Shown piece after piece: positions 17,447-35,550 of a DNA stretch of 38,810 nucleotides. The position numbers and the translations under genes are program-made. The notes under the pieces are model-generated. The model did not search any database. It was not told the origin of the DNA and saw only the letters and a program-made list of their open reading frames with translations. The stretch comes from an uncultured Bacteroidales bacterium (GTDB taxonomy: Bacteria > Bacteroidota > Bacteroidia > Bacteroidales > Bacteroidaceae): the NCBI GenBank assembly GCA_902802265.1, contig CADCLN010000028.1, positions 1 to 38,810 on the forward strand, given 5' to 3'. The stretch's first letter is position 1. Each line of letters opens with the position of its first letter.

Positions 17447-17578
17447 AGTTCTCTCACTACCGTGGCATAGTTCTCCCACTGCGGTGGCACTGCATTGCTA
17501 CCGCAGCGATACTGCATTGTTACCGCAGTGGGAGAACTATGCCACCGCAACGGCAATGCAGTGCCACTGGAACCTGTT
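17447..17578 (+). repeat. 22-bp-period repeat array with a perfect 24-bp inverted repeat
   Basis: Six consecutive 22-bp blocks start at 17447, 17469, 17491, 17513, 17535 and 17557. Positions 9-13 of each block read YACYG or nearly so (CACTA, CACTG, TACCG, TACCG, CACCG, CACTG). Adjacent blocks pair up as near-identical copies (1 with 2, 3 with 4). In addition 17462-17485 is a perfect 24-base inverted repeat of 17522-17545, and 17484-17498 is a perfect 15-base inverted repeat of 17553-17567. The two long stems compete, so alternative RNA or cruciform folds are possible. There are no unique spacers, so it is not a CRISPR array. It starts 13 bp after the mtaB stop codon. Confidence 0.85.
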
Positions 17579-18169: not shown

Positions 18170-21127
18170 ATGAGAAAAGTTTTTTATGGAGCCGTATTCT
18201 TCGGCACTTTGCTGGCGTGTTCTTCCTGCGAAAATACGTTCAAGGACGTGTATGGCGATGTGAACGAGGAATCTAAACCCGAATGGCTCGGGGGGAGCAT
18301 CTACTCCGAACTGCAGAACCCAGACGGCGAGAAGTTGACAGGGTCTTTCTCGAACTATCTGCGGCTGATTGACGACCTGGGCTATGCCGAGACGTTGAAC
18401 CGCACGGGTAGTAAAACGATTTTCCCTGCCAACGACGAGGCGTTTGCGCGTTTTTTTGCCCAAAACGACTGGGGCGTTTCGAGTTATGAGGAACTGACCT
18501 TTGCACAAAAGAAGTTGCTGCTGTATTCATCCATGCTGGACAATGCCCTGCTGGTGAATATGCTGGCAAACGCAAGTGCGGGCAGAGACATCACCGAGGG
18601 TGTTGCCCTGAAGCATCCGACGAACATCAGCGTGATTGACTCGATTGAATATATCGATCCTGCAAAGATGCCGAAAAACAACAAGTATTGGGACCAGTGG
18701 CGAAACGGAACCCAGGGCGTTTATGCCGTGAGGGACAACACGACGCCGATGATGGTGCATTTCACCCGCGAGCAAATGGTGAACAATGGCATCACGACGA
18801 CGGGCGAGGGATCGGACTTTGAAATCCTGACTGGCGAAAAATATAATGTGGAAGAAAATAATGTGTATATCTTCGACAACAAGGTTATCAAGGCTGACGT
18901 GACGTGCCTCAACGGCTACATCCATCAGGTGCAGAACGTGATGATGCAGCCTGGGAATCTGGCTCAGGTGATTGCCAAGCAGGGAAACACGAAGTATTTC
19001 AGCCATATCCTGGACTATTACGCCATGCCGTATCTGGATGCAGTGGTCACACGAAATTATAATGACTGGGTGCAGCAGAACCAGGAGGAGGCTGCAAAAT
19101 ATGGCTATGCACAGCACGACTCGGTGATGCAGGTGCGATACCTGAGTTCACGCTCACAGAATGCGCCCCTGGTGACTGACCCTAACGGGGCAAGCAAGGC
19201 GACGACAGAGGTGTTGCGCTTTGACCCAGGCTGGAACCAGTATTACCCCAGTTCCGCCTATAATCTGGGCGGCGACCAGACGCAGATTTCAGACATGGCG
19301 GCGATATTTGTGCCAACGGACGAGGCTTTCGAGAAGTATTTCCTGAAGGGCGGCGCGGGCGAATATATCATCGAAGTGTATGGCAAGAAACCGAACACAA
19401 AGGAGAACCTGATGGAAAACCTGGACACGCTGTTCGCCGCTCGTCCGCAGATTCTGACGGCGTTTGTGCGCAACCTGCAGCAGGCTTCGTTTGTCAGCAC
19501 CGTGCCCAGCAAGTTTGAGTCAATCATTAACGACGCCAGCGAAAACCTGGGCATGAACAAGACGAAGTTGCAGGTGAGGGAAGATGGCAAGTATGACATC
19601 AAGATTGCCAACAACGGTGTGGTTTACAAACTGAATCAGATGATTGCTCCGGACGAATACAGCGCAGTGCTGGCTCCGTCTTCCACATACAAGGATATGT
19701 TGACGATGAACTGGGCGGTGCAGGACTGGCATTCTTCTTCGACAACAAGTTACCTGTCGTTGGACTTCAAATACTTCCTGCTGGCCATGAAGGCTAACTA
19801 TGCGTTCTTCATCCCCGACGACCAGGCGTTTGACTGCTATTACTTAGACCCCACCACGCTGGGCCATGCTCAACCCGAAATGCTGCATATCTATTATGAC
19901 ACGGAAAAGAAGGGTGAGCCGAAGATTCAGGCAGAGTCGTTCAGTTATGACGTGAAGACGCAGACCGTTGGCGAGCGTCTGAGCACGGTGGAAATCGGCA
20001 ATGTGTCGGCACCGAATCCGCGCATCAAGTCGGCGTTGACGGATATCCTGAATTACCACACGGTGGTGCTGACTCATGGAGACACCATCGGCATCACGAA
20101 TAAGAATCATTATTACAAGACAAAGCATGGTGCCGAACTGTATATTGACTACGGGTCAAACCCCAGGCAGAAGATGGAAATCAAGAGCGGTGCCGCCCTG
20201 GACAACGGACTGCCTGCTGCCAACATGTATGGTGCAGATGCGGGCAAGGCTTCTTATTTCAGCCAGGCTAACGGTACGGCTTACCGCATTGACCACATCA
20301 TCCAGCCTACCATCCGCAGTGTGTCGGAGGTGCTGCGCACCACTCCGCGCTTCTCGGCTTTCCACGAGGCTTGCGGCGGTTTTGCCAACGCCGAACTGAT
20401 GAGCTGGATTGGGTTTTCTGACCAGGAGGATGAGTTCCACCGCACAGAACAGGATCAGTATCTCATTTTCAGTCAGCAGGATGGCGACTACAGTTCGCTG
20501 GATGCTGTGGATGGCAACGTCAGAATGTTCAATACATATAATTATACGCTGTATGCTCCAAACAACGAGGCAATGGAAAAGGCTTATGCTGCAGGATTGC
20601 CCAGCTGGGAGGACATCTTGGGTGTGTTTGAGAAACATGCCGAGCAGTTCCCCGACAGTTGTCCTGAGCCTTACGCCACGGTGCTGAAGGCTAAGGTGAC
20701 GGCGTTGAAGAATTTCTGCCGCTATCATTTCCAGAACATTTCGCTGTATGCAGACAACACGGTGGAAGGAGGCACGTACCAGAGCCTCTACACCAATAAT
20801 TATGGTTTGGCTCAGGAGTACAAGGTTTCGGGTGGCAGCGGTGTCATCACCGTAAGGGATGCTGCGGGTGTGGATCATCACATCGATGCCAATGATGCCA
20901 GCAAGATGACAAATGTGATGACTCGCGACTACTGGCTGAACACCGACCGCAAGACGGCCACGTCGATTGCCACGTCGTCGTTCTGTGCCGTGCACGAAGT
21001 GACGGAGCCTTTCTACTCTGCGAAGTCGAAGCGGTATGATGCTGCGTGGGCTGAGAACGACATTACTCAGGACAGTGACTGGTCGGCTGCGAAAAGACGT
21101 GTGGCTGCCAAGAGAACAAGACATTAA
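18170..21127 (+). CDS. Surface lipoprotein with four FAS1 (fasciclin)-like modules
   Basis: A 985-residue predicted lipoprotein; the signal peptide ends in LLAC (lipidated Cys17). Four copies of the FAS1 strand motif are seen: TIFPANDEAF (83-92), AIFVPTDEAF (378-387), AFFIPDDQAF (545-554) and YTLYAPNNEAM (792-802). Each module ends with the FAS1-type closing strand, such as GYIHQVQNVMM (249-259), NNGVVYKLNQMI (481-492) and NGTAYRIDHII (701-711). The modules are longer and more divergent than animal fasciclin domains. FAS1 domains mediate adhesion in many organisms; in Bacteroidota they accompany SusC/SusD pairs, but the ligand is unknown. First gene of the operon, 20 bp before susC. The C terminus is basic (KRRVAAKRTRH). 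Confidence 0.85.
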   Translation: MRKVFYGAVFFGTLLACSSCENTFKDVYGDVNEESKPEWLGGSIYSELQNPDGEKLTGSFSNYLRLIDDLGYAETLNRTGSKTIFPANDEAFARFFAQNDWGVSSYEELTFAQKKLLLYSSMLDNALLVNMLANASAGRDITEGVALKHPTNISVIDSIEYIDPAKMPKNNKYWDQWRNGTQGVYAVRDNTTPMMVHFTREQMVNNGITTTGEGSDFEILTGEKYNVEENNVYIFDNKVIKADVTCLNGYIHQVQNVMMQPGNLAQVIAKQGNTKYFSHILDYYAMPYLDAVVTRNYNDWVQQNQEEAAKYGYAQHDSVMQVRYLSSRSQNAPLVTDPNGASKATTEVLRFDPGWNQYYPSSAYNLGGDQTQISDMAAIFVPTDEAFEKYFLKGGAGEYIIEVYGKKPNTKENLMENLDTLFAARPQILTAFVRNLQQASFVSTVPSKFESIINDASENLGMNKTKLQVREDGKYDIKIANNGVVYKLNQMIAPDEYSAVLAPSSTYKDMLTMNWAVQDWHSSSTTSYLSLDFKYFLLAMKANYAFFIPDDQAFDCYYLDPTTLGHAQPEMLHIYYDTEKKGEPKIQAESFSYDVKTQTVGERLSTVEIGNVSAPNPRIKSALTDILNYHTVVLTHGDTIGITNKNHYYKTKHGAELYIDYGSNPRQKMEIKSGAALDNGLPAANMYGADAGKASYFSQANGTAYRIDHIIQPTIRSVSEVLRTTPRFSAFHEACGGFANAELMSWIGFSDQEDEFHRTEQDQYLIFSQQDGDYSSLDAVDGNVRMFNTYNYTLYAPNNEAMEKAYAAGLPSWEDILGVFEKHAEQFPDSCPEPYATVLKAKVTALKNFCRYHFQNISLYADNTVEGGTYQSLYTNNYGLAQEYKVSGGSGVITVRDAAGVDHHIDANDASKMTNVMTRDYWLNTDRKTATSIATSSFCAVHEVTEPFYSAKSKRYDAAWAENDITQDSDWSAAKRRVAAKRTRH

Positions 21128-21147
21128 CCTTCAAACAAACTTTCACT

Positions 21148-24100
21148 ATGAATAATAATATAATAAGTATAGGCAAAAACAGAATCGGTGCCCTACTCTC
21201 AGCAATGCTGTTGTGCCTGTTCCCTATGGTTACAATGGCTCAGGGGACACGCATTTCGGGAACTGTCGAGGATGACATGGGCCCTGTGATGATGGCAAAC
21301 GTGGTGGAACGGGATAACAACAACCGTATCATCAATGCCACAACGACCGACTTTAACGGTAACTTTGCTCTGGCTATCAAAAGTACAAAGAACAGGCTGG
21401 TGGTTTCTTATGTGGGCAACAAGACACACTCTGAGGTCATTGGCAACAAGAAGGTTTTCAAGATTTTCATGGAATCGGAAACCCAACTGCAGGAGGTTGT
21501 GGTAAAGGCCGAGAAGAAGTCAAGCGTGGGCGGACTGAATATCCCTGTCAGGGAGATGACGGTGGCTACGCAGACTTTCAACATGGAAGATGTGGAGGGT
21601 CTGTCGTTCACCAGTGCCGACGAGGCTTTGCAGGGTGAAATTGCGGGTCTTGACATTGTGGCCAATTCGGGTAATCTGGGTGCCGGCACTCAGATGCGTC
21701 TGCGTGGTGTGACGACCATCAACGGCGATGCGAACCCGCTGATTGTGGTGGATGACAAGATTTTCGACAACCCTGATGAGAATTTCGACTTCCAGAGTGC
21801 CACGGAGGAACAGTATGCGTCGCTGCTGTCTGTGAATGTGGACGATATTGCAAAGATTGACGTACTGAAGGATGCTGCTGCCACAGCTGTGTGGGGTGCT
21901 TACGGTGCGAATGGTGTGATTCAGATTACAACCAAGCGTGGTATTCGTGGCAAGACGAAGGTGGCTTTCTCGTATAAGTTTACAGGTACGTGGATGCCGA
22001 AGGGCTACAACTTGCTGAACGGTGACGACTACACCATGATGCTGAAGGAAGAGTTTTATAATCCAAGTCAGAGCAGTACGGCAACAGCTAACATGGCTGA
22101 GTTGAATTATGACCGGTCGTGGGCTGATTTTGAAAACTGGAACAACAACACAGACTGGGTGAAGGAGGTTTCAGATTTTGGTAAGTTGCAGAATTTCAAT
22201 CTGAACATTACGGGTGGTGGTGAAAAGGCTCGTTTCCGTATTTCGGGTAGCTATGACCACCAGACGGGTTCTATCATCCAGCAGAAATTGAATCGTCTAA
22301 CGACAAGATTGGTGCTGGACTATGATGTGAGTGACCGTATTCGTTTCTCGACGAACTTTGCCTTGACTTACACAAATAATGACAAGAATTACAGCGACTT
22401 GTTGGCTATTGCTCAGCAGCAGGCTCCGAACATGGCTGTGTATCGGCAGAATGCGGATGGTTCAGATACGGACGAGTATTACAAGATGAATCCGAGCGGC
22501 AATCCGTATGCTGGCAATTATTCTTCCAACAATTTGTCGGGATTGCTGCGACTGGGTAACCCTGTTGCCATTGCCCACCAGGCTTGGAAGAAGGAATCGA
22601 CTTATCGTATTACTCCCGACTTCACGCTGAGGTATGAGTTGTTGGGCAAGGATGCTGACAGCCACCGACTGACACTGTCGGCCAACGTGGATTTCGATAT
22701 CTATGCCAACAGTTCGCCGACATGGTATCCTGCCGACTTGACAGCTGGTTCAAATGCTGGTAATGGATGGGAAAGCAACATGTATAATGCAAGCACCAGT
22801 TCGGAGAGTAACCGCTTCAAGATTGGTGCTGAGGGAAAGCTGACGTTTACTCCGCATTTCAACAATGAAAACTGGTCGGCAATGGCAATGTTGCGCTATC
22901 AGATGCACACATCGAAGAGTAACAGCCAGGCGGTGAAGATTTACAATCTGCCTCCCCATATTGTTTCGACAACGGCTGAGGGTGGAAATGCTGACATGGC
23001 AAGTGCTACCAGCCGGTCGGCTGACGAGAATATTCTGTTCAATGCTCATGCTTCGTACAAGAGTATCTACAGTTTAGGTTTCAGTATGCGTCTGGATGGT
23101 AACTCCAAGTTTGGCCCTTCACACAAATGGGCTGCTTTCCCAGGTATTTCGGGACGTTGGAATCTGATCGACGAGAAGTTTATCCGCAGTTGGATGCCAG
23201 AAGTGGTTTCAATGCTGGCTCTGCGTCTGAGTTATGGTATCAACGGACGTGCTCCTTCAACGGATTACCTTTATTATAATAAGTATAACACAAGTGCCGG
23301 TTTCTACGGAAGAGGTAGCAGTCAGGCTGCCTATGCTACTGTGGACGGCATGAAGCTGGATGACCTCCGCTGGGAGAAGACGACTTCTATCAACATCGGT
23401 GGTAACTTGAATTTCTTTGAGGACAGGTTGACCATTGACTTTGACTATTATCGCAAGAATACGTCTGACTTGCTGATGACGGATGTGAAGATTCCGACTT
23501 CGACGGGCTACAGTGCTTTGTCCTGGTATAATGCCGGCAAGATGACCAACGATGGTTGGGAACTGAATGTCAGCGGCAGGGACTTCGTGAAGGTTGGCAA
23601 GGATTTCTCCATCAGTGCGAACTTCAACATTGCACAGAATGTGAACAACATCAAGGAGATGGACGAAAGGGTGCTGAGTGCCATCAACTCTAATTGGGCG
23701 GCTGACAGCAGGGGTACTTACCTGAACCGCATCCAGGAGGGCAATCCGCTGGGTTCCATCTATGGCTTGCGCTATAAAGGTGTTTACCAGTATAGCTATT
23801 CTTATCTGGAGAATTACCGCAAGGAGAATAATCTTTCAACAGAGGAATATCGTGCCTGGATCAACGACCAGCTGGATGCAGGCAAGACCTTCCCTGTAGC
23901 TGTGGACGATAAAGGTCATGTGCTGATGACGAATCAGGGTACTCCTCAGCGAATGGTTTACAATTATGAGAATGGTTCGCCAACGTATCAGTTCAATGGC
24001 GGTGATGCCATTTATGAGGATATCAACAATGACGGACAGATTAATGCACTCGACGTGGTTTACCTGGGTAATGCCATGCCAAAAATTAACGGTGGTTTCA

Positions 24101-24567
24101 GCCTTACGTTCAAGTATAAGAGTTGGAAACTGATTGCTCGTTTCAACTACCGTGTGGGCAACAAGATTGTGAATGCGGCTCGCATGAATTTGGAGAATAT
24201 GTACACCACGAACAATCAGACTACGACGGTGAATTATCGTTGGCGTAAGGACGGTGACTCCACCCCTATTCCACGTGCACTGTATGGCCAGGGTTACAAC
24301 TGGCAGGGTTCAAGCCGATACGTGGAGGATGGTTCATTCTTGCGTTTCCAGAACCTACAGCTTTCTTATTCTTTCCCACAGAAAAAGTTAAAGAAGTTAG
24401 GCATCAGTACGCTGGCTCTTTATTTCTCAATGAACAATTTGTATTGCTGGACGAAGTACAGCGGTGTTGACCCAGAAGTGTCCATTGGTGGATGGGGTGT
24501 TGCGGTAGATAATTCGAAAACGCCTCGCTCCAAGCAGTTTACAGCTTCTTTAAATATCGGATTCTAA
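21148..24567 (+). CDS. SusC/RagA-type TonB-dependent transporter (first)
   Basis: A 1139-residue outer-membrane importer. After the signal peptide (about 1-32, ending VTMAQ) comes a carboxypeptidase-regulatory-like beta domain (TRISGTVEDD..TTDFNGNFALAI), then a TonB-box-like LQEVVVKAEKK, the plug (LRGVTTINGDANPLIVVDD, VLKDAAATAVWGAYGANGVIQITTKRG) and a 22-strand-type barrel ending in SLNIGF, with the C-terminal aromatic residue typical of outer-membrane barrels. There is no N-terminal secretin/TonB signalling domain, so it should not signal directly to an anti-sigma factor. With the SusD encoded 15 bp downstream it should form a lidded importer. Substrate unknown. Confidence 0.96.
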   Translation: MNNNIISIGKNRIGALLSAMLLCLFPMVTMAQGTRISGTVEDDMGPVMMANVVERDNNNRIINATTTDFNGNFALAIKSTKNRLVVSYVGNKTHSEVIGNKKVFKIFMESETQLQEVVVKAEKKSSVGGLNIPVREMTVATQTFNMEDVEGLSFTSADEALQGEIAGLDIVANSGNLGAGTQMRLRGVTTINGDANPLIVVDDKIFDNPDENFDFQSATEEQYASLLSVNVDDIAKIDVLKDAAATAVWGAYGANGVIQITTKRGIRGKTKVAFSYKFTGTWMPKGYNLLNGDDYTMMLKEEFYNPSQSSTATANMAELNYDRSWADFENWNNNTDWVKEVSDFGKLQNFNLNITGGGEKARFRISGSYDHQTGSIIQQKLNRLTTRLVLDYDVSDRIRFSTNFALTYTNNDKNYSDLLAIAQQQAPNMAVYRQNADGSDTDEYYKMNPSGNPYAGNYSSNNLSGLLRLGNPVAIAHQAWKKESTYRITPDFTLRYELLGKDADSHRLTLSANVDFDIYANSSPTWYPADLTAGSNAGNGWESNMYNASTSSESNRFKIGAEGKLTFTPHFNNENWSAMAMLRYQMHTSKSNSQAVKIYNLPPHIVSTTAEGGNADMASATSRSADENILFNAHASYKSIYSLGFSMRLDGNSKFGPSHKWAAFPGISGRWNLIDEKFIRSWMPEVVSMLALRLSYGINGRAPSTDYLYYNKYNTSAGFYGRGSSQAAYATVDGMKLDDLRWEKTTSINIGGNLNFFEDRLTIDFDYYRKNTSDLLMTDVKIPTSTGYSALSWYNAGKMTNDGWELNVSGRDFVKVGKDFSISANFNIAQNVNNIKEMDERVLSAINSNWAADSRGTYLNRIQEGNPLGSIYGLRYKGVYQYSYSYLENYRKENNLSTEEYRAWINDQLDAGKTFPVAVDDKGHVLMTNQGTPQRMVYNYENGSPTYQFNGGDAIYEDINNDGQINALDVVYLGNAMPKINGGFSLTFKYKSWKLIARFNYRVGNKIVNAARMNLENMYTTNNQTTTVNYRWRKDGDSTPIPRALYGQGYNWQGSSRYVEDGSFLRFQNLQLSYSFPQKKLKKLGISTLALYFSMNNLYCWTKYSGVDPEVSIGGWGVAVDNSKTPRSKQFTASLNIGF

Positions 24568-24582
24568 AAAACAGTCTATCAC

Positions 24583-26352
24583 ATGAAAAAATATATTTAT
24601 TTTATCCTTTCAAGTCTTCTTGCTGTATCGTGTGTGGATACGGCCTTGCTCCCAGACGATAAGACTGTGGATGAAGATTTCTGGAAGACGAAGTCAGATG
24701 TGTCACTGATGGTGAATGGTGCATACGCTCAGATGCTGAACAGAGATTTGCTGACAGACTTGATTGTCTGGGGCGATTTCCGCAGTGACGAACTTGTGCA
24801 GTCTTCGGGCATACTGAGTGGCAGTGTGTTTGAAGCTTTGCGACAGATTGGCACGGCAAACATTGAGACAACCAACACTTATACAAACTGGCAGCCGTTC
24901 TACTCGGTCATCAATTATTGCAATATTGTGATTATGAAGGCTGGTGATGTGATGGGTGTTGACCCGAATTACACAGAGGGTGACTATCAGAATGACATTG
25001 CCCAAATGAAAACTTTGCGTGCGCTTTGCTATTTCTACCTGGTTCGTAATTTCCGCGATGTTCCGTATATTACAACGGGGTATATGCAGAACAGCCAGGA
25101 AATGAATGTTCCTCAGACGGCTCCCGAAACGGTGTTGAATGCTTGCATTGCTGACCTGAAGGAGGCTGCAAACCACATTGTTGACCCCACGGCATACAGT
25201 GACTGGAAGGCAAAGGGCTGGCTGAACCGCAATGCGGTATATGCATTGCTGGCTGACATTTATCTGTGGAAGGCTTCGGTCCATCACAATGATGCCAACT
25301 ATAATGCTGCAGCTGATTATCAGCAGTGTGTTGATTATTGCAACCTGGTGATTGACTCAAAGAATGCTGCCCACCGTTATGGACCCATGGAGATTGTGGA
25401 TGAAACAAACCTCTACCCCGCAATGGCGAAGTATGGCAATGACTACAACGATTTGTTCATTGACCAGAACGGCGAGGAGAGTATTTTTGAATTGCAATAT
25501 GACGGTACAAATAACAGCAATGCTGCGCTGTGCAGTATGTTGTACAAGTATGGTGGCAATACTGCCAACTATGGTTATCTGAAGGCTCCACAGATGTTTG
25601 GCATCAGCGGAACCACGAACAATGTGTTCCCTCAGCAGTATGACGGCCGGAAAATCAAGTTCATCTTTAGTGCAAACAACAATGAGGCCTTGGAGCAGTA
25701 TGATGTAAGGAAGATGATTGTCTCGAACAATTCGCTGTCATACGGTGCTCCGACAAGTACAGGACAGAGTAGGCAAAGTGACCGCAGCAACACGCGATTT
25801 GCCCAGAACTATATCGTTTACCGCTTGACGGATGTCATGCTGATGAAGGCTGAAGCAATGGGGCAACTTGCCAACGGCGATGAGGATATCATGCTGAGAC
25901 AGGCTTTCAACATCGTAAAGGCTATCAATGACCGTGCACATCCCGAAGGGCTTTATTCTGATACGCTGCGTTTTGCTACGACCAAGAGCGTGCAAGGTAC
26001 TGCCGTAAACACGAAGGCTGGTTTTGAGGAACTGGTACTGGAAGAGCGTTTGCGCGAACTTTGCTTCGAGGGCAAGCGCTGGTATGACTTGCTTCGCTAT
26101 AATTACCGTCACACTGAAGGTGTAAATTATAACACCATCCTGGCAGACTTGGGTGGAAACTACCCTGTGAATTTCCGCCCGATGCTCACGCTGATGGCAA
26201 GAAAGATTGAGTCGCCCGACGGTCTGATTTCAAAGATGCCGACTGAACCTTATCTGTATATGCCTATCAGAGAGGGTGAAATGGACGTGAATCCTGAACT
26301 GAAGCAGAATCCTGTGTATAGTTCTTCTGACAAATGGGAAAAGAATTATTAA
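24583..26352 (+). CDS. SusD/RagB-type surface lipoprotein (first)
   Basis: A 589-residue SusD-family ligand-binding lid for the SusC at 21148. The lipobox ends LAVSC (Cys17). The N-terminal region has the family pattern (DDKTVDEDFWKTKSDVSLMVNGAYAQM), the helical TPR-like scaffold includes MKTLRALCYFYLVRNFRDVPYIT and LNRNAVYALLADIYLWKA, and the C-terminal SusD motif is ELVLEERLRELCFEGKRWYDLLRY. The end reads like a complete protein (VYSSSDKWEKNY). It presumably acts on the cell surface and closes over the SusC barrel. Confidence 0.96.
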   Translation: MKKYIYFILSSLLAVSCVDTALLPDDKTVDEDFWKTKSDVSLMVNGAYAQMLNRDLLTDLIVWGDFRSDELVQSSGILSGSVFEALRQIGTANIETTNTYTNWQPFYSVINYCNIVIMKAGDVMGVDPNYTEGDYQNDIAQMKTLRALCYFYLVRNFRDVPYITTGYMQNSQEMNVPQTAPETVLNACIADLKEAANHIVDPTAYSDWKAKGWLNRNAVYALLADIYLWKASVHHNDANYNAAADYQQCVDYCNLVIDSKNAAHRYGPMEIVDETNLYPAMAKYGNDYNDLFIDQNGEESIFELQYDGTNNSNAALCSMLYKYGGNTANYGYLKAPQMFGISGTTNNVFPQQYDGRKIKFIFSANNNEALEQYDVRKMIVSNNSLSYGAPTSTGQSRQSDRSNTRFAQNYIVYRLTDVMLMKAEAMGQLANGDEDIMLRQAFNIVKAINDRAHPEGLYSDTLRFATTKSVQGTAVNTKAGFEELVLEERLRELCFEGKRWYDLLRYNYRHTEGVNYNTILADLGGNYPVNFRPMLTLMARKIESPDGLISKMPTEPYLYMPIREGEMDVNPELKQNPVYSSSDKWEKNY

Positions 26353-26372
26353 GAGAAAGGAGTAAGAAAAAT

Positions 26373-28472: not shown

Positions 28473-28515
28473 GCATTTCATCCAAACATTAACCCTCAAC
28501 ATTTATTGACCGATT

Positions 28516-30309
28516 ATGAAAATAAGTAAATATATAGGTTACACCATGGTGGCTGTAGGTATGCACACCGCAACATCTTGTTCTGACTGGAATGATTGGA
28601 ACACTGTGCCATCGGATGTAAACATGGCGGCAGAAAGGACTCTGTGGGAGAACATTACAGAAAAGCCCGAGCTGCAGAACTTCAAGCAGATTCTGGAAAA
28701 GGTTGGTGCACAAGAGGTGTTCAATACAAACCGATATTATACGGTTTGGGCACCGACACTGACTAATTTTCAGCGAGACTCGATTCTGGCTCTTGACAGT
28801 GCCGTCATTGTGAATCAGTTTGTCAACAACCACATTGCTGAGTATAATCATCAAGCCTCGGGCATTGTTTCGGAACGAATCCATACGCTCAATGAGAAGT
28901 CGTACAGTTTCTCCGGAGAAAATGGCGTCTATAAATTTAATGATGTGGATGTCATCGAGAAAAATATTCCAAACAACAATGGTACGCTGCACATCTTGAG
29001 CAGCAAATCACCTTTCCTGCCTAATGCTTACCAAAACATCTGGATGGCTAACGATGTGGATTCACTTGCCAATTACTTCAAGAAATATGAATTAACAGTA
29101 TTGGACGAAAGCAAATCCGTAGCAGGTCCGATGGTGAATGGTAAACAGACTTACATTGACTCAGTAATGGTGACATACAACTCTATGGCAAACAGCATCA
29201 GAGCAAAACTCGACTCGGAAGACTCTGTTTACACGTTCATCATGCCAAACAATGAAGCGTACAAGAAACTGTATGACAAGATTGCTTCGCTCTACACGTA
29301 TGTAAATGGCATTCAGGCTCAAGATGTCATCACTTCGACTTCGGCATCGAGTTATACAACCCTGACTGCTCCATCTATAGACATGAGTTACCTAAAAGAT
29401 TCGCTGATTCGCCGTCAGATTGTTAACAATTTGGTTTATAGTCACAACAACAAGTATAATGCCAAATTCTTTGACGGCATTGAATACAGCTATAAAGGAG
29501 CTGGTGTGCCAGAAGACACGATTGTTTCCACTTATCGCAATTGGTTCACTGATCCAGAAATGATTTTTGGCCCAGCACACATCAAGGAAAACATCAAACT
29601 CTCCAACGGTAAAGCTGTCGTCGTGGATTCCATGATGTTCAAGTCATGGGAAACATTCAATCCAGAAATCACGGTGCCAGGTATTAGCACTGTCCGCGCT
29701 TTATCGGGAACACCTTCTTTCGTCAGAGTAACTTACCCTGACAGTTCAAAAGTTGATTTGACAGATGGAAAACGTGTCATTTATGCACAAGTTGAGCCAA
29801 CATCTTCTTTTGGAAAACCCGAAATGGATTTCTATCTGCCCAATGTGCTTTCTGGCACTTACCGCATCTATGCTGTCATTCCACCTGTGAACGTCAGCCT
29901 TGAAGATACGACTGCGGTAAAACCCAATTGGCTGAACTTCACGTTGAACTATTATAATCCCAAGACTGCAAAGTTGACAGATTATACGTTTACCAACAGC
30001 CGATTTGTCAGTGGCAGCGAAATCATCACTTACAGCGACAAGGGGAAGGAAGTGAAAACCGCTATCAAAGATACGGACTTCTTTAATGACACGACGAAGG
30101 TAGATACCCTCTTGCTCGGAGAATTCACATTCCCATGCTGCTACAAAGGCATCGGTGAGTATTATCCCAACATCAAAACAACAATATCTTCTTCGTTCAA
30201 AACATTGAAGTCTTCTGGACATCTGGATGCTTTTGACCGCACCATTCGCATTTGCGCCATCATCCTTCGTCCTGTTGAGTATGATAAATATCTTAAAGAT
30301 GAAGAGTAA
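28516..30309 (+). CDS. FAS1-domain lipoprotein with C-terminal beta-sandwich (third)
   Basis: A 597-residue lipoprotein with lipobox TATSC (Cys22) followed by the acidic SDWNDWN. FAS1 module 1 carries YTVWAPTLTNF (75-85) and closes with NGTLHILSSKSPFLPN; module 2 carries YTFIMPNNEAY (239-249). The C-terminal part (about 390-597) contains VIYAQVEPTSSFGKPEMDF and YLPNVLSGTYRIYAVIPPV, matching in layout the C-terminal module of the gene at 26373, so the two are likely paralogues. It lies 43 bp after that gene and 15 bp before the second susC, mirroring the position of the first FAS1 gene ahead of the first susC. Confidence 0.85.
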   Translation: MKISKYIGYTMVAVGMHTATSCSDWNDWNTVPSDVNMAAERTLWENITEKPELQNFKQILEKVGAQEVFNTNRYYTVWAPTLTNFQRDSILALDSAVIVNQFVNNHIAEYNHQASGIVSERIHTLNEKSYSFSGENGVYKFNDVDVIEKNIPNNNGTLHILSSKSPFLPNAYQNIWMANDVDSLANYFKKYELTVLDESKSVAGPMVNGKQTYIDSVMVTYNSMANSIRAKLDSEDSVYTFIMPNNEAYKKLYDKIASLYTYVNGIQAQDVITSTSASSYTTLTAPSIDMSYLKDSLIRRQIVNNLVYSHNNKYNAKFFDGIEYSYKGAGVPEDTIVSTYRNWFTDPEMIFGPAHIKENIKLSNGKAVVVDSMMFKSWETFNPEITVPGISTVRALSGTPSFVRVTYPDSSKVDLTDGKRVIYAQVEPTSSFGKPEMDFYLPNVLSGTYRIYAVIPPVNVSLEDTTAVKPNWLNFTLNYYNPKTAKLTDYTFTNSRFVSGSEIITYSDKGKEVKTAIKDTDFFNDTTKVDTLLLGEFTFPCCYKGIGEYYPNIKTTISSSFKTLKSSGHLDAFDRTIRICAIILRPVEYDKYLKDEE

Positions 30310-30324
30310 AACCATAAAAGCACG

Positions 30325-33300
30325 ATGATTATGACAAAGTTTTTTGATAACATACAATGCCAGAGCCTACGCCTTTCCGTCTGTGCTCTTATGATTGCCT
30401 CTGCCACTGCTGTTTGTGCTCAAGACGAAGCTGAAGAGCAGGCTCCGACGCAGAAGCCTGCAAAGCGAGAGAAAGTGGAGAAGAAATATCCCACCGTGAC
30501 ACTGAAGGGAAACATTGTTGACCTTGGCACGAAGGCTCCACTTGCAGGTGTACAAATTCAAGCCTTAGGCAATAACAAATATACTGCCTTGAGCGACGAA
30601 GAGGGTAATTTTACCATTCAAGTGCCTAAGTTCGTCACTTCGCTCTATGTATTCTCACCAGAATACCTCAGCCAGCAGGTTGCCATCAATCCGAGTGACC
30701 CAGAAAGTGAAATCTGTATCAAGATGCTCAGCGACCAATTCGGAAAGATGTATGACAATAGTACGTCTTACACAGCATCGAAAAAGATTGGCATAGAATC
30801 GCACGACGCTACCATTGACGGTGACATCACCAAACAAATGAATGGAGATGTGCGTTCCATCACTCGTTCCGGTGCCATAGAAAACGGTGCTGCCATGTTC
30901 ATTCGAGGACTTAACTCGCTGAATGCAAATGCGCAGCCTCTCATTGTGATTGACGGCATAGAACAAGACATGATGCTGGATCGTGGTGCATTGCATGACG
31001 GACAATTCATGAATGTGCTTGCCAACATTTCGCCGAGTGACATTGAAAGCGTAGAAGTGCTTAAGAATGCCACAGCTCTGTACGGTGCCCGTGGTGGCAA
31101 TGGTGTGATTCTCATTAACACCAAACGAGGACACTCCATGGCAACCCGCATTGATGCCGACATCTATGCTGGGGTGCAGCTCATCCCTGCCCTGCCCACG
31201 ATGATGAATGCAGCTCAATACCGCACGTATGCTACGGAAATGATTGGTTCCATCATGGAACAGCAAAATTATGCAAAGAGTATTTCGTTCAATTTCCTGA
31301 ACGATGACCCTACGGGTTTTTATTACAATATGTATCATAACGACACAGATTGGACCAAAGAAGCTTACCGCAATGCCATTACCCAAAACTACAACATCAA
31401 TGTGCAGGGTGGCGATGATGTGGGTATGTACAACTTGTCGTTGGGTTACAGGAAGTCACAAAACACAGCAAAGGAAAACGACTTTGACCGCATGAACATT
31501 CGTTTCAACACGGATATTGAAATAATCAAACAACTCAAGACCAAGTTTGACCTTTCTATTTCACGCACAAACAGCAATGTGTTTGACATGGCGATACCAG
31601 CCAACTTGACACAGGGTACCGTTACGTCACCAACCTTCCTTTCTCTCATCAAGTCTCCATTGGTGGCTCCTTATGAATATAATGCCATCATCAAGGATTA
31701 TTCAAACATTCTGAGCAGCTACGACGACATCTTTGAGCAGCTTAACACAGTTCAAAGCGGTCTGGGACGTGCACAATCTCTGGCTAACCCCACGTCAATC
31801 CTTGAATACGGAAAAGGCGACAACAAAAACAAAAATGAAAACACGTATTTCAATGTGCTGCTGGCACCTACATTGGAAATCAACAAACATCTGAAATTGA
31901 CAGAAACCATCAGCTACTCACTGACACGTAATTCTCAGCGTTATTTCCGTCCCAACACGGGTGTTCCAAGTTTCACCATTAGTGATCTCGGCACAGTGTA
32001 TTCCAAGGTGATGTCTTTCCAAGCCAAGGAAAATAACATTGTTAGCAACACACGTATTGATTGGGAGCAGCTTTATGGTAGCCATTCCATCAAAGTCTTT
32101 GGTGGTTTCCGTTACAACCGATTCAAATATGATTGCACCTCGTTGGCTACAGAATACACAACGAATACAGGCAACGACAAGAACCCGACCCTTTCATCTA
32201 CTTCAGGCTACCCCACTTCAACAGGTGCTGCTGATGTCTGGAAACAGATACAATGGTATGCAAATGCCGACTACAATTATCAAAACAGATTCTTTGCCAC
32301 GGTATCACTCTTGGCTGAATCAAACAGCCGCTTCGGAGCTAACTCAGGTCAGAAGATTTTCGGTGTTGGGTGGGCTTTCTTCCCCAGCATTCAGGCTGGA
32401 TGGATTCTGACCAATGAAAAATGGTTCAAGAAGAACAAAGGAGTGAATTATCTGCGTGTTAATGTAGGCTTCGATACCAGCGGAAATGACAACATTTCCA
32501 ATTATGCCGCTCAAACATCCTATTCCTCTATACGTTACAACTACAATGCCATTGGTGCACAACTTACCAACATTGGTAACGATAATATCAAATGGGAGTT
32601 GACCAAGAAATTTAATGCTGGCGTTGAAGGAAACTTTATAGATAACCGCATTTCATTTGCATTCAATTACTACATCCACAATACCAACGACTTGCTTACG
32701 CTCAAGACGTTTGAAAATCCTATTGGCGGCATCAACCGTTATTGGACAAACGGTGGTTCGCTCCGCAACGAAGGATTTGAAACCACTGTCAGCTTCAAGC
32801 CTGTAGTCACAAAAGATTGGCACTTTGAAATCGGGGCTACTGTTGGTCACTACAAGAATAAAATCACGGCATTACCTGATGGAGACTACACATCTTCTAT
32901 ATATGGGAACAACAATATCCTCACAGCTGTGGGTCGTCCTGCAGGGCTTTTCTATGGATATGAAACAGCCGGAGTGTTTGCCAATGCCGACGAAGCAGCC
33001 AAATATGGGAAATCGCACGAAAACGTAAACCACCAGGCAACGACAAATCTATACATGATCAATGCCGCTGGCCAGAAAATCGATTTCCAGGCAGGCGATG
33101 TTCACTTTGTGGATCAAAATGCAGACGGTGTCATCAACGAAAGCGACAAGGTTGTCATTGGAGACCCCAATCCTGACATTTATGGAAACATTTTTGCTAC
33201 GCTCAACTGGAAACGTCTTACATTTGGACTGAATTTCAGTTATAGTCTGGGCAATGACATTTACAATTATCAGCGTGCCATTCTCAATGCTGGCAGCAAT

Positions 33301-33666
33301 TTCTATAATCAGCAAGTGGCAGAAACAAGCCATTGGCGTTACGAAGGTCAGCAGACCGACATCCCACGCCTCAATTACGGAGACCCGCTGGGCAACAACC
33401 GTTTCAGCGACCGTTGGATTGAAGATGGCAGTTACCTTCGCCTGAAGAACATCAATCTCACTTACAAAATTCCAGTGCCAACTTCTTGGTCATGGTTGCA
33501 AGGACTTTCTGTATGGGCAGAAGCACGCAATGTGTTCACACTTACAAAATATCTCGGTGCAGACCCAGAGTTTAGCATTGCCAATGGCGTGCTCTACCAA
33601 GGCATCGATGCTGGCAACCTGGCACAAGGCCGTCAGTTCCTCGTTGGTGTAAAAATTAACCTCTAA
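30325..33666 (+). CDS. SusC/RagA-type TonB-dependent transporter (second)
   Basis: A 1113-residue outer-membrane importer. The signal peptide (ending TAVCAQ, about residue 33) is followed by an unusual charged linker rich in E, K and P (DEAEEQAPTQKPAKREKVEKK), then the carboxypeptidase-regulatory-like domain (VTLKGNIVDLGTKAPLAGVQI, SDEEGNFTI). The plug is clear (AMFIRGLNSLNANAQPLIVIDGIE, VEVLKNATALYGARGGNGVILINTKRG), and the barrel ends in GVKINL. The usual LxEVVV TonB-box pattern before the plug is not seen; IGIESHDATIDGDI occupies that region. An in-frame ATG two codons downstream is an alternative start. The SusD partner follows after 15 bp. Confidence 0.95.
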   Translation: MIMTKFFDNIQCQSLRLSVCALMIASATAVCAQDEAEEQAPTQKPAKREKVEKKYPTVTLKGNIVDLGTKAPLAGVQIQALGNNKYTALSDEEGNFTIQVPKFVTSLYVFSPEYLSQQVAINPSDPESEICIKMLSDQFGKMYDNSTSYTASKKIGIESHDATIDGDITKQMNGDVRSITRSGAIENGAAMFIRGLNSLNANAQPLIVIDGIEQDMMLDRGALHDGQFMNVLANISPSDIESVEVLKNATALYGARGGNGVILINTKRGHSMATRIDADIYAGVQLIPALPTMMNAAQYRTYATEMIGSIMEQQNYAKSISFNFLNDDPTGFYYNMYHNDTDWTKEAYRNAITQNYNINVQGGDDVGMYNLSLGYRKSQNTAKENDFDRMNIRFNTDIEIIKQLKTKFDLSISRTNSNVFDMAIPANLTQGTVTSPTFLSLIKSPLVAPYEYNAIIKDYSNILSSYDDIFEQLNTVQSGLGRAQSLANPTSILEYGKGDNKNKNENTYFNVLLAPTLEINKHLKLTETISYSLTRNSQRYFRPNTGVPSFTISDLGTVYSKVMSFQAKENNIVSNTRIDWEQLYGSHSIKVFGGFRYNRFKYDCTSLATEYTTNTGNDKNPTLSSTSGYPTSTGAADVWKQIQWYANADYNYQNRFFATVSLLAESNSRFGANSGQKIFGVGWAFFPSIQAGWILTNEKWFKKNKGVNYLRVNVGFDTSGNDNISNYAAQTSYSSIRYNYNAIGAQLTNIGNDNIKWELTKKFNAGVEGNFIDNRISFAFNYYIHNTNDLLTLKTFENPIGGINRYWTNGGSLRNEGFETTVSFKPVVTKDWHFEIGATVGHYKNKITALPDGDYTSSIYGNNNILTAVGRPAGLFYGYETAGVFANADEAAKYGKSHENVNHQATTNLYMINAAGQKIDFQAGDVHFVDQNADGVINESDKVVIGDPNPDIYGNIFATLNWKRLTFGLNFSYSLGNDIYNYQRAILNAGSNFYNQQVAETSHWRYEGQQTDIPRLNYGDPLGNNRFSDRWIEDGSYLRLKNINLTYKIPVPTSWSWLQGLSVWAEARNVFTLTKYLGADPEFSIANGVLYQGIDAGNLAQGRQFLVGVKINL

Positions 33667-33681
33667 AAAACTTTTCCGAAC

Positions 33682-35550
33682 ATGAAAAATTATCATATAA
33701 AGAGCCAAAGCATTGCAACACTGTTTGCTTTCTTCATTCTTCATTCTTCATTCTTCATTCTTTCATCCTGTTCCGACATGATGGAAACGGATAGTGACCG
33801 ACAAAGCATCGAACCAGAGTTGAACACCAAAACCGACTCCGTTTTCTATGCATTCGGTATTGCACAAGCCATGCAACAATTGGCCGACCAATATTTCTTT
33901 CAGGGAGAAATGCGAGGAGAACTTGTCACCACCACAGACAAAACGGACATCAACCTGCGTCAGTTAGCTAATTTCAGTGCAGACATAACCAACAAGTATG
34001 ACAGCGCTTACGTCTATTATCGCGTCATCAACAATTGTAACTACTACTTGGCTCATCGTGACACAACCTTGCTTACCGGCTCGACGGATGTTACCCGCCG
34101 TGAATATGCAGCAGTAAAGGCTTACCGTGCATGGGCTTACCTACAATTAGCACGTAATTACGGCAAAGTGCCATTCTTCACAGAACCATTGACCACCATC
34201 TCTCAGATCGACGACAACAAATTTCCAGAATACGGCATCGAGGAAATTGCCGCTAATCTGTGCCCAGACCTTGAAACCTATTCAGGAACTTCCGTTCCCA
34301 ACTATGGTACAAGCATCTCCTGTGGTTTCACAAACTTTGGACTGTCAAAAACAATGGACACACGCAAATGTTTCATCCCTGTAAATGTCATTTTGGGCGA
34401 TCTTTATCTTGAAACGGGTCAATACCAGAAAGCCATCAACAGCTATGTCACCTATCTCACAACAGAAGAAGTCAGATCGCCCTCAGTCATTGCGCCATTT
34501 AAACTCCGCAATAAAGAAGACCAAAACCCAACCAACATGAGAGGTGTCATTGCCAGCAGTCCAAACTACGGCGACATCTATAATAATAATAATGTGACAG
34601 ACATTGTCACTTACATCCCCATGTCAGTAAGCAGAGTGCGCGGTACTACGACCAACGTGCCCAACACATTTGGCTATGACTATTATGCACTCACAACTGC
34701 TGCTTGCTGGAAAGAAGACATCCAGCTGCTGCCATCAGAAGCTTACAACACACTTACCGAAGACCTTACTTACTATTATTACGAGAATGTGCTCGGTGGC
34801 ACCCCAAACCGTGACGTAACTTCTGGTCCATACGGCGACATGCGTTCTTTAGCCATTATGCACACACGACAGCAAGCTTCAAATCTTCAGACCGATGACG
34901 AAGAAGATCTGCAGTGGATTGACAAATTCCAAAGCGGCAACATCATCCTCTATCGAATTTCGACCATTTACCTGCACCTTTGTGAAGCACTTAACCGCGC
35001 AGGACTGCCCGATGCCGCATTTGCTTTCTTAAAAGAAGGTATCAACAGCAATGACACGATCCAGGCCAATACTTGGCTTTCAGAGGCAGGCAAACAATTC
35101 TTCCGCACCACGTTCCTCAATGAAAAGAACGGGGAAATCTTCTACAATAATTCACAACCAATCCACCAAAGAGGTTGCGGCGTAACCAGCGACAGACAAT
35201 ACCCTGGTGCACAAGGCGCATCACCCTATCAGTTTGCCACAGAAATTGGAAACAAATTAAAGAAACTGGCAGAAAACGCAGCACTTTATCCTGGACTGGC
35301 AAGCAGAGTTACCGCTAATGCAACAACAAAAGCAGACACCATCATGGCGATGGAAGAATTACTTTGCGATGAAGAAGCCATGGAATTCTGTTTTGAAGGC
35401 TCACGATGGTACGACCTCATGCGTTTTGCTAAACATAAAAATCGCGCCGGATTGCAAGGAAATGCATGGCTGGCAGATAAACTAAAAGCAAATGCACCCA
35501 CCAAAGCACTCACTGATGAACAAAATTGGTACCTTCCATTCAAAAAATAG
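33682..35550 (+). CDS. SusD/RagB-type surface lipoprotein (second)
   Basis: A 622-residue SusD-family lipoprotein pairing with the SusC at 30325. The signal peptide contains an internally repeated hydrophobic stretch (FFILHSSFFILSS) and ends in the lipobox LSSC (Cys30), followed by acidic SDMMETDSD. The family core is visible: YYRVINNCNYYLAHRD, VKAYRAWAYLQLARNYGKVPFFT, YLHLCEALNRAGLPD and the C-terminal LLCDEEAMEFCFEGSRWYDLM. The codons for residues 18-27 consist of four perfect 7-bp repeats, a slippage-prone tract. Last gene of the operon; a T-rich tract (35565-35625) without a strong GC stem follows. Confidence 0.95.
   Translation: MKNYHIKSQSIATLFAFFILHSSFFILSSCSDMMETDSDRQSIEPELNTKTDSVFYAFGIAQAMQQLADQYFFQGEMRGELVTTTDKTDINLRQLANFSADITNKYDSAYVYYRVINNCNYYLAHRDTTLLTGSTDVTRREYAAVKAYRAWAYLQLARNYGKVPFFTEPLTTISQIDDNKFPEYGIEEIAANLCPDLETYSGTSVPNYGTSISCGFTNFGLSKTMDTRKCFIPVNVILGDLYLETGQYQKAINSYVTYLTTEEVRSPSVIAPFKLRNKEDQNPTNMRGVIASSPNYGDIYNNNNVTDIVTYIPMSVSRVRGTTTNVPNTFGYDYYALTTAACWKEDIQLLPSEAYNTLTEDLTYYYYENVLGGTPNRDVTSGPYGDMRSLAIMHTRQQASNLQTDDEEDLQWIDKFQSGNIILYRISTIYLHLCEALNRAGLPDAAFAFLKEGINSNDTIQANTWLSEAGKQFFRTTFLNEKNGEIFYNNSQPIHQRGCGVTSDRQYPGAQGASPYQFATEIGNKLKKLAENAALYPGLASRVTANATTKADTIMAMEELLCDEEAMEFCFEGSRWYDLMRFAKHKNRAGLQGNAWLADKLKANAPTKALTDEQNWYLPFKK
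33733..33760 (+). repeat. Four tandem TTCATTC heptamers in the signal-peptide codons of susD
   Basis: TTCATTC occurs at 33733-33739, 33740-33746, 33747-33753 and 33754-33760 without mismatch, followed by the near-copy TTTCATC. Seven is not a multiple of three, so gain or loss of one or two units shifts the reading frame, whereas three units (21 bp) keep it and change the peptide by seven residues. Confidence 0.95.

What the first reader, a model, noticed from the sequence alone, without database searches (positions are those of the whole stretch)
18170..35550. Seven-gene FAS1-SusCD operon with two importer pairs, three fasciclin lipoproteins and no enzymes
Seven same-strand genes with gaps of 15-43 bp run FAS1, SusC, SusD, FAS1, FAS1, SusC, SusD. 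Classical polysaccharide-utilization loci add hydrolases, lyases or sulfatases and a regulator; none is present here or in the flanking 1 kb. This suggests uptake of a ligand that needs no surface cleavage (a cofactor complex, peptide, small glycan or host-derived molecule), or a mainly adhesive/receptor role with FAS1 modules capturing the ligand. The order looks like two FAS1-SusC-SusD units plus one extra FAS1 gene. What is seen is the layout; the function is inferred.
Basis: partly seen in the sequence, partly recalled or inferred. Interest (0 to 1): 0.8.

Follow-up and report, generated by a model that had tools for sequence, protein, structure and literature searches.

The report
Conserved FAS1-SusCD plant-glycan uptake cassette
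Seven neighbouring genes in a gut bacterium encode two outer-membrane sugar importers and three fasciclin-type surface proteins; the same seven genes in the same order recur in distantly related bacteria, often beside pectin- or xylan-cutting enzymes, so they most likely form one conserved unit for capturing and importing plant cell-wall fragments.

Summary
The layout is real. Window 18170-35550 holds FAS1, SusC, SusD, FAS1, FAS1, SusC, SusD on one strand, gaps 15-43 bp, with no enzyme domain over a Pfam cut-off. It is not a local oddity: of 108 fetched loci with a relative of the middle FAS1 gene, 76 show the same seven-gene order, 9 more are cut by an end but consistent, 1 is half a cassette, 22 are solo, none is rearranged. 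The order also holds in six genomes of other orders of the class. The 'no enzymes' reading misleads: relatives sit beside rhamnogalacturonan lyases, GH28, pectinesterase, GH88 and GH115, and a second copy in the same genome lies in a xylan-type locus, although 16 of 35 cassettes with wider flanks showed none of the seeded enzymes. PL11 lyases are enriched near the cassette, less clearly once loci seen beforehand are left out; GH10 xylanases are not. Two FAS1 proteins are predicted as FAS1 pairs plus a beta-sandwich resembling carbohydrate-binding modules. Best reading: a plant cell-wall glycan (for this copy probably pectic) capture-and-import unit. Substrate and FAS1 role are untested.

The parts
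18170..21127 (+). FASa: 985-aa predicted surface lipoprotein with several FAS1 domains
   Evidence: Pfam Fasciclin 65 bits, 2 stretches; three FAS1-like regions 59-132, 213-258, 784-829 with i-E below 1e-4; Cys-containing signal read from sequence
21148..24567 (+). SusC1: SusC/RagA TonB-linked outer-membrane importer
   Evidence: TIGR04056 690 bits; nearest PDB chain 8aa4
24583..26352 (+). SusD1: SusD-like lipoprotein
   Evidence: PF07980 88 bits, PF14322 52 bits
26373..28472 (+). FASb: lipoprotein, FAS1 pair plus C-terminal beta-sandwich
   Evidence: Pfam Fasciclin 61 bits; model pLDDT 83.5; Foldseek TGFBIp/periostin and carbohydrate-module hits; start at Met14 from alignment
28516..30309 (+). 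FASc: lipoprotein, FAS1 pair plus C-terminal beta-sandwich
   Evidence: Pfam Fasciclin 51 bits; model pLDDT 86.0; Foldseek
30325..33666 (+). SusC2: second SusC/RagA importer, 24% identical to SusC1
   Evidence: TIGR04056 571 bits
33682..35550 (+). SusD2: second SusD-like lipoprotein
   Evidence: PF07980 34 bits
35836..38631 (+). X (P0008): 931-aa secreted protein of unknown family, companion of the window-type cassette
   Evidence: Homologues beside window-type cassettes: downstream in L044, L045, L046, upstream in L065, L067, L143, L145, L148; no Pfam match over cut-off

Best explanation
A conserved seven-gene outer-membrane module for capturing and importing plant cell-wall oligosaccharides. 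Three FAS1 lipoproteins act in the place of SusE/SusF-type surface glycan-binding proteins: the FAS1 domains form a spacer or assembly platform and the C-terminal sandwiches bind glycan. They hand fragments to two SusD lids, and two TonB-driven SusC barrels import them. Cutting is done by enzymes encoded next to the cassette in many relatives but elsewhere in this genome. The window copy most likely serves a pectic, rhamnogalacturonan-I-like glycan; the copy on contig C2 serves an acetylated glucuronoarabinoxylan. Shown: gene content, order, conservation, enzyme neighbours in relatives. Predicted: domain folds. Inferred: surface location, binding by FAS1 proteins, substrate, co-operation of the two importers.
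For: Order kept in 76 of 108 judged FASb loci, none rearranged, and in 6 genomes of the same class but other orders. Gap medians 12-30 bp in 64 cassettes. Window-type relatives: GH67 (L065), GH28 + pectinesterase (L067); GH2 and GH35 (L143), PL11 next to X (L145), PL11 (L146); GH28 in L146, GH43 in L143 by seed search; 6 of 10 window-type cassettes with wider flanks had a seeded enzyme (L024, L062, L065, L066, L067, L081). Other orders: rhamnogalacturonate lyase and GH115 (L166), GH2, SASA/GDSL esterase, GH88; GH28, PL22, GH95, GH106 in a tally. Own C2 copy: GH43, SASA esterase, arabinofuranosidase (GH51 type), GH67. PL11 within 20 kb of FASb 15 of 125 (expected at most 4.8), GH10 1 of 62; without the four contigs where PL11 had been seen before, 10 of 124 (at most 4.4, p 0.016) and 16 within 30 kb (at most 6.3, p 0.0009). 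The 4 genus genomes with a window-type cassette hold 5, 7, 7, 5 PL11 genes against a mean of 2.5 in 22 others, and 4 GH28 each against 1.7. Hybrid two-component regulators by 6 cassette loci. Fold hits to CBM6, CBM35 (one solved with anhydrogalacturonate) and Xyn10B.
Against: In this genus the window-type cassette has no enzyme beside it: none by seed search with L025/L045 and L026/L046, and in G014 only a pectinesterase-like gene about 8 kb beyond X. Of 35 cassettes with wider flanks, 16 had none of the seeded enzymes, and several of the 19 positives are the very loci the seeds came from. Neighbours point to more than one glycan (pectin, xylan, a GH5 beside L172). Some carriers (G060, G064, G068) lack PL11, and G060 and G068 lack GH43. 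PL11 was chosen after it had been seen in four of the 28 genomes; leaving those genomes out, 7 of 105 lie within 20 kb (at most 4.0 expected, p 0.11) and 13 within 30 kb (at most 5.8, p 0.006), and PL11 genes cluster, so these p-values are too small. PL11 and GH28 counts are not corrected for kinship; one genome without the window-type cassette also has 5 PL11, and two have 4 GH28. The carbohydrate-module matches have E of 2e-4 to 1e-2, no ranges were printed, and non-carbohydrate sandwiches score alike.
Confidence: 0.6

Rival explanations
1. Uptake of a ligand that needs no surface cleavage (cofactor complex, peptide, host-derived molecule).
For: No enzyme in the seven genes or next to them in the window; 16 of 35 cassettes with wider flanks have no seeded enzyme nearby. 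RagA chains are among the solved relatives of both SusC proteins.
Against: Enzymes for pectin and xylan beside many relatives, including the window clade, PL11 enrichment, carbohydrate-module-like folds. The best-scoring solved SusC for both is 8aa4, well ahead of RagA, though the calls do not tell its substrate.
Confidence: 0.1
2. The window copy serves xylan rather than pectin.
For: Own C2 copy lies in a locus with arabinofuranosidase and GH67; L065, close to the window by FASb identity (54%), has GH67 next to it; solo FASb genes sit by GH8 and GH43.
Against: GH10 is not enriched near FASb (1 of 62) while PL11 is; most enzymes named near window-type cassettes are pectic or galactan/arabinan types (GH28, pectinesterase, PL11, GH2/GH35). 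GH67 in the genus lies on a cassette contig in only 2 of 19 genomes.
Confidence: 0.2
3. Primarily adhesive: FAS1 lipoproteins tether cells to plant fibre, import is secondary.
For: FAS1 pairs resemble TGFBIp/periostin; solo FASb genes exist without a same-strand SusCD in 22 of 108 loci.
Against: Two complete SusCD pairs are locked into the order; solo FASb genes in several loci sit by GH8 and GH43, i.e. in degradation loci.
Confidence: 0.15

Closest known systems
Polysaccharide utilization loci (Sus-like systems) of Bacteroidota
   Same: SusC/SusD pairs, extra surface lipoproteins, tight operon; enzymes and hybrid two-component regulators beside relatives
   Different: Fixed seven-gene unit with two dissimilar SusCD pairs and three FAS1 lipoproteins; no enzyme or regulator in the unit
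Tandem SusCD xylan systems (xusABCD of Prevotella bryantii; PUL17 of Segatella copri DSM18205)
   Same: Two SusC/SusD pairs serving one plant glycan (passages of PMC8002723, and PMC11784079)
   Different: No FAS1 gene is mentioned in the passages read (0 hits for FAS1 in PMC11784079); GH10 xylanases belong to those systems but are not enriched near this cassette
FAS1 gene in a Gramella portivictoriae cellulose/hemicellulose-like PUL (PMC4891872, Fig. 6 legend, passages read)
   Same: A FAS1-domain protein inside a Bacteroidota PUL
   Different: Only the legend was seen, not the figure; gene number and order could not be compared, so it may be the same cassette
Eukaryotic FAS1 proteins (TGFBIp, periostin)
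   Same: Tandem FAS1 fold
   Different: Bacterial lipoproteins with a C-terminal sandwich, linked to importers

Membership tests
SusC/RagA family | TIGR04056 above curated cut-off (368 bits), plug and signature motif | tested here: met
   690 and 571 bits; signature TIGR04057 49.8 bits, met for SusC1, 45.9 against 46.2, just under for SusC2
SusD family | SusD_RagB / SusD-like_3 above cut-off, next to susC | tested here: met
   SusD1 88 and 52 bits; SusD2 34 bits for SusD_RagB, 23.5 under 27 for SusD-like_3
FAS1 (fasciclin) domain family | PF02469 above cut-off (22 bits) | tested here: met
   65, 61, 51 bits
Classical PUL | susCD pair with adjacent carbohydrate-active enzymes | tested here: not met
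   No enzyme in or beside the cassette in the window; met for the C2 copy and many relatives
Classical PUL | linked regulator (HTCS, ECF or similar) | tested here: not met
   None next to the cassette by Pfam (small ORFs were not scanned); HTCS beside L088, L093, L105, L110, L123, L130
Surface glycan-binding proteins (SusE/F position) | lipoprotein encoded by susD that binds glycan | tested here: inconclusive
   Position (next to susD) met for FASb and FASc; invariant Cys in 31 FASb and 26 FASc sequences; binding not testable here
Tandem xylan (xus) system | two SusCD pairs tied to GH10 xylanase | tested here: not met
   Two pairs present; GH10 near FASb in 1 of 62 cases
Known CBM families | sequence match of the C-terminal domain to a CBM profile | tested here: not met
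   No CBM Pfam match in FASb/FASc; only fold resemblance

The most novel reading that the evidence does not exclude
The seven proteins build one fixed outer-membrane machine in which FAS1 lipoproteins physically bridge two different SusCD gates, so that two chemically different parts of one branched glycan (for example RG-I backbone and side chain) are captured by a shared scaffold and imported by separate gates. This would be a second, FAS1-based architecture of glycan 'utilisome', kept since the ancestor of several orders.
Probability: 0.25. Interest if true: 0.8.

Novelty: new variant of a known kind. Interest (0 to 1): 0.6.

Why it matters
It gives a function-linked home to FAS1 proteins of Bacteroidota, for which my searches listed no described role beyond one figure legend, and names a conserved import unit of gut and rumen bacteria that enzyme-centred PUL prediction could split or overlook. 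It also makes a clear test possible: whether FAS1 domains are glycan receptors or assembly parts, and why two unlike SusCD pairs have stayed locked together over such divergence.

Tried and rejected
Enzyme hidden in the FAS1 genes: none over cut-off by Pfam or NCBIfam. RNA element or clear promoter: no Rfam match at gathering score in the window; promoter and terminator scans near chance; the Bacteroidota -33/-7 pattern (recalled) gave 2 hits against 0.9 expected, none upstream of the operon. Solved-structure sequence search for FASb and FASc gave FAS1 proteins of animals, algae, cyanobacteria and other bacteria, none of Bacteroidota by name. Simple 'GH67 linkage' was dropped: in the genus 2 of 19 GH67 genes share a contig with a cassette. 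Phylum search with the FASb profile: 8 of 395 genomes including the own one, but only two candidates per genome were scored, so a lower bound. A first gene-order count misfiled L077, L098, L110, L023 and L133 because the longest antisense ORF had been kept; a six-frame recount corrected them. Loci judged are those fetched, not all that exist: searches list more FASb places. Dropped before the 108 count: duplicates L064 and L136, the continuation L022, small loci L001-L020 and L162-L165, flank-only loci, and L125, which I left out as a copy of the small L017 although L017 was left out too (L125 is a solo FASb by GH8; with it 109 and 23 solo). Some solo loci have under 2 kb on one side. L101, L103 and L127 have a weak SusD2 match, and L139 a weak SusC1 match, on the opposite strand. 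Of the seven other genomes matched I looked at six (not G271) and at one of two places in G322. Distance matrices of the seven proteins correlate at r 0.83-0.95 over 64 cassettes; I do not lean on it because kinship alone would give much of that. Literature: searches; only the PMC library was searched, searches listed 15 of 237 and 15 of 353 papers, and 'SusC' also matched words such as susceptible. The one paper holding fasciclin, SusC and SusD (PMC10199937) has fasciclin only in its reference list.
Full report
The window is contig C28 of a 2.88 Mb draft genome, 86% complete. That RUG stands for rumen genomes is recalled. No species name is shown for the window.

Observation. The seven ORFs, their strand, order and short gaps are as described. 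FASb starts at Met14 of the listed ORF. A 735-bp gap lies upstream, after an MtaB gene; a 285-bp gap lies downstream, then gene X. The three FAS1 proteins and both SusD proteins have lipoprotein-like N-termini (read from the sequence printed); the Cys is invariant in 31 FASb and 26 FASc sequences.

Conservation. Relatives of FASb occur in 24 of 25 genus genomes, the own one included, with two more cassettes in the own genome, on C2 and C15 (the C2 one read over L021 and L022). A scan of named genomes gave 80 loci, many with titles from ruminants and other herbivores, but also Bacteroides nordii, Prevotellamassilia timonensis, Paludibacter and Paraprevotella (the best 80 of at least 281). 108 FASb loci were judged in six frames: 68 with the exact seven genes in order, 8 with the order kept but a gene split or duplicated, 9 cut by an end and consistent, 1 half cassette (L091), 22 solo FASb, 0 rearranged. 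Six of these loci (L166-L171) are from genomes of the same class but other orders, found in a phylum sample; L172 is from the same order; all seven are complete, while an eighth fetched stretch, L173, holds a solo FASb-like gene. Identities of the window proteins to those of L166 are 22-36% over the aligned parts. In L166-L172 each slot matches its own slot best, so the two SusCD pairs were already different before these orders split.

Enzymes. The window's own cassette has none beside it, and the seed search found none in the flanks of its G001 and G007 orthologues (GH97 apart); the G014 orthologue has a pectinesterase-like gene about 8 kb beyond X. But the C2 cassette sits between GH43 + MFS transporter and SASA esterase, arabinofuranosidase and GH67. 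Near window-type cassettes: GH67 in L065; GH28 and pectinesterase in L067; GH2, GH35 in L143 (flank of L062); PL11 beside X in L145 (flank of L065); PL11 in L146 (flank of L066). L062, L066, L067, L068, L081 and L089 form one clade with the window, L024 and L025 (support 1.0); L065 and L026 were not in that tree and are placed by FASb identity (54% and 67%). Of ten window-type cassettes with wider flanks, six had a seeded enzyme and four (L025, L026, L068, L089) had none. The nearest neighbours of L062 (PD40 protein, tRNA synthetase), L066 (MucBP-like, fn3/PATR) and L068 (SpoIIE-type regulator) are not carbohydrate enzymes. In other orders: rhamnogalacturonate lyase and GH115 (L166), GH2 (L169), SASA/GDSL esterase (L170), GH88 (L171); in L172 GH5; L167 and L168 showed no seeded enzyme apart from a GH97. 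A 60-protein tally of their flanks lists GH28 (2), PL22 (2), GH95 and GH106 (1 each); a 60-protein control from arbitrary places in the same genomes lists GH130 (3) and GH53 (1); each shows the first 25 of 73 families. With seeds taken from such flanks, 19 of 35 cassettes with wider flanks had at least one seeded enzyme and 16 had none; 0 of 10 control stretches had any. The seeds came from these loci, so this contrast is biased. HTCS-type regulators lie beside six cassettes (L088, L093, L105, L110, L123, L130).

A fairer test used positions of whole families in 28 named genomes: of 125 PL11 places, 15 lie within 20 kb of a FASb gene (at most 4.8 expected) and 23 within 30 kb (at most 6.8); of 62 GH10 places, 1 (2.4 and 3.4 expected). 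The 23 fall on 13 contigs, PL11 genes cluster, and the PL11 list was cut by the tool, so the p-values are too small. PL11 was chosen after it had been seen by cassettes of four of these genomes. Leaving out those four contigs, 10 of 124 (at most 4.4, p 0.016) and 16 of 124 (at most 6.3, p 0.0009) remain; leaving out the four genomes, 7 of 105 (at most 4.0, p 0.11) and 13 of 105 (at most 5.8, p 0.006). The enrichment stands at 30 kb and is weak at 20 kb.

Within the genus, 26 of 26 genomes have PL11 and 25 of 26 GH28. The four with a window-type cassette have 5, 7, 7, 5 PL11 genes (22 others: mean 2.5, maximum 5) and four GH28 matches each (others: mean 1.7, maximum 4) (Mann-Whitney p 0.0009 and 0.0016, not corrected for kinship).

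Folds. FASb (31-sequence alignment, pLDDT 83.5) and FASc (26 sequences, pLDDT 86.0) are predicted with a beta-rich C-terminal region after the FAS1 part. Foldseek gives TGFBIp and periostin (E to 1e-15 and 8e-11); for FASb also 7ehg 'MiXBM' (8e-4), CBM6 2cdp (4e-3), CBM35 2w1w/2w47 (4e-3, 1e-2), and for FASc Xyn10B 2wys (2e-4) and a galactanase 7bys (1e-3). Ranges are not printed; that these hits are to the C-terminal region is my inference. The lists also hold non-carbohydrate sandwiches (Eph receptors, gingipain adhesin domains, Cry proteins), so the fold alone does not prove sugar binding. The planned second structural alignment was not available.

Mechanism. Most likely: FAS1 lipoproteins capture and present fragments at the surface, SusD lids and SusC barrels import them, enzymes are supplied from other loci or from neighbours. 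The substrate of the window copy is probably pectic, of other copies partly xylan. Why there are two unlike SusCD pairs is open.

Solo FASb genes lie beside GH8 in L038, L040, L043, L100, L101, L103, L114 and L127 of the 22 solo loci, and in L125, which was outside the count; GH43 lies by four of them and an FGGY sugar kinase by L100 and relatives. This is consistent with FASb being a glycan-binding part that can serve alone.

Known work. PMC4891872 names a FAS1-domain gene in a Gramella PUL figure legend (passages read). PMC8002723 and PMC11784079 describe tandem SusCD pairs for xylan (passages of the former; passages and the whole pectin section of the latter). PMC10807430 describes pectin PULs with PL11, GH28 and GH106 (passages; FAS1 not mentioned). 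PMC6032426, a FAS1 review, treats bacterial FAS1 mainly in host contact in the passages read. No paper in the listings of the fasciclin/FAS1 searches describes the seven-gene unit; two of these listings were partial, subscription papers are not covered, and PULDB was not available. Family labels GH51, PL4, PL22 and CE8 for the Pfam names shown, and HTCS for the regulators, are recalled.

Noticed in passing
window 17462-17569; G000 genome-wide: Long inverted repeat after mtaB (33-nt arms, 91% complementary). Its 24-nt arm has 55 matches (up to 3 mismatches) over the own genome, 0 for the reversed-pattern control, some spaced by 22 or 44 bp: an interspersed REP-like repeat family.
   Followed up: partly
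L023:1564-2220 (G000:C15): A protein with a Cohesin domain (27.6 bits, cut-off 24.1) is encoded just upstream of the C15 cassette.
   Followed up: no
L038, L040, L043, L100, L101, L103, L114, L127: Solo FASb genes, without same-strand SusCD, beside a GH8 gene, four also with GH43.
   Followed up: partly
L113:8298-17606: Five FASb-like genes in a row, the last cut by the contig end, no SusCD.
   Followed up: no
L091, L092: Two FASb genes next to very long ORFs (1611 and 1626 aa); L091 keeps only FASb-FASc-SusC2-SusD2.
   Followed up: no
window 35836-38631: Gene X: 931-aa secreted protein without a Pfam family, conserved beside window-type cassettes but on either side of them.
   Followed up: partly
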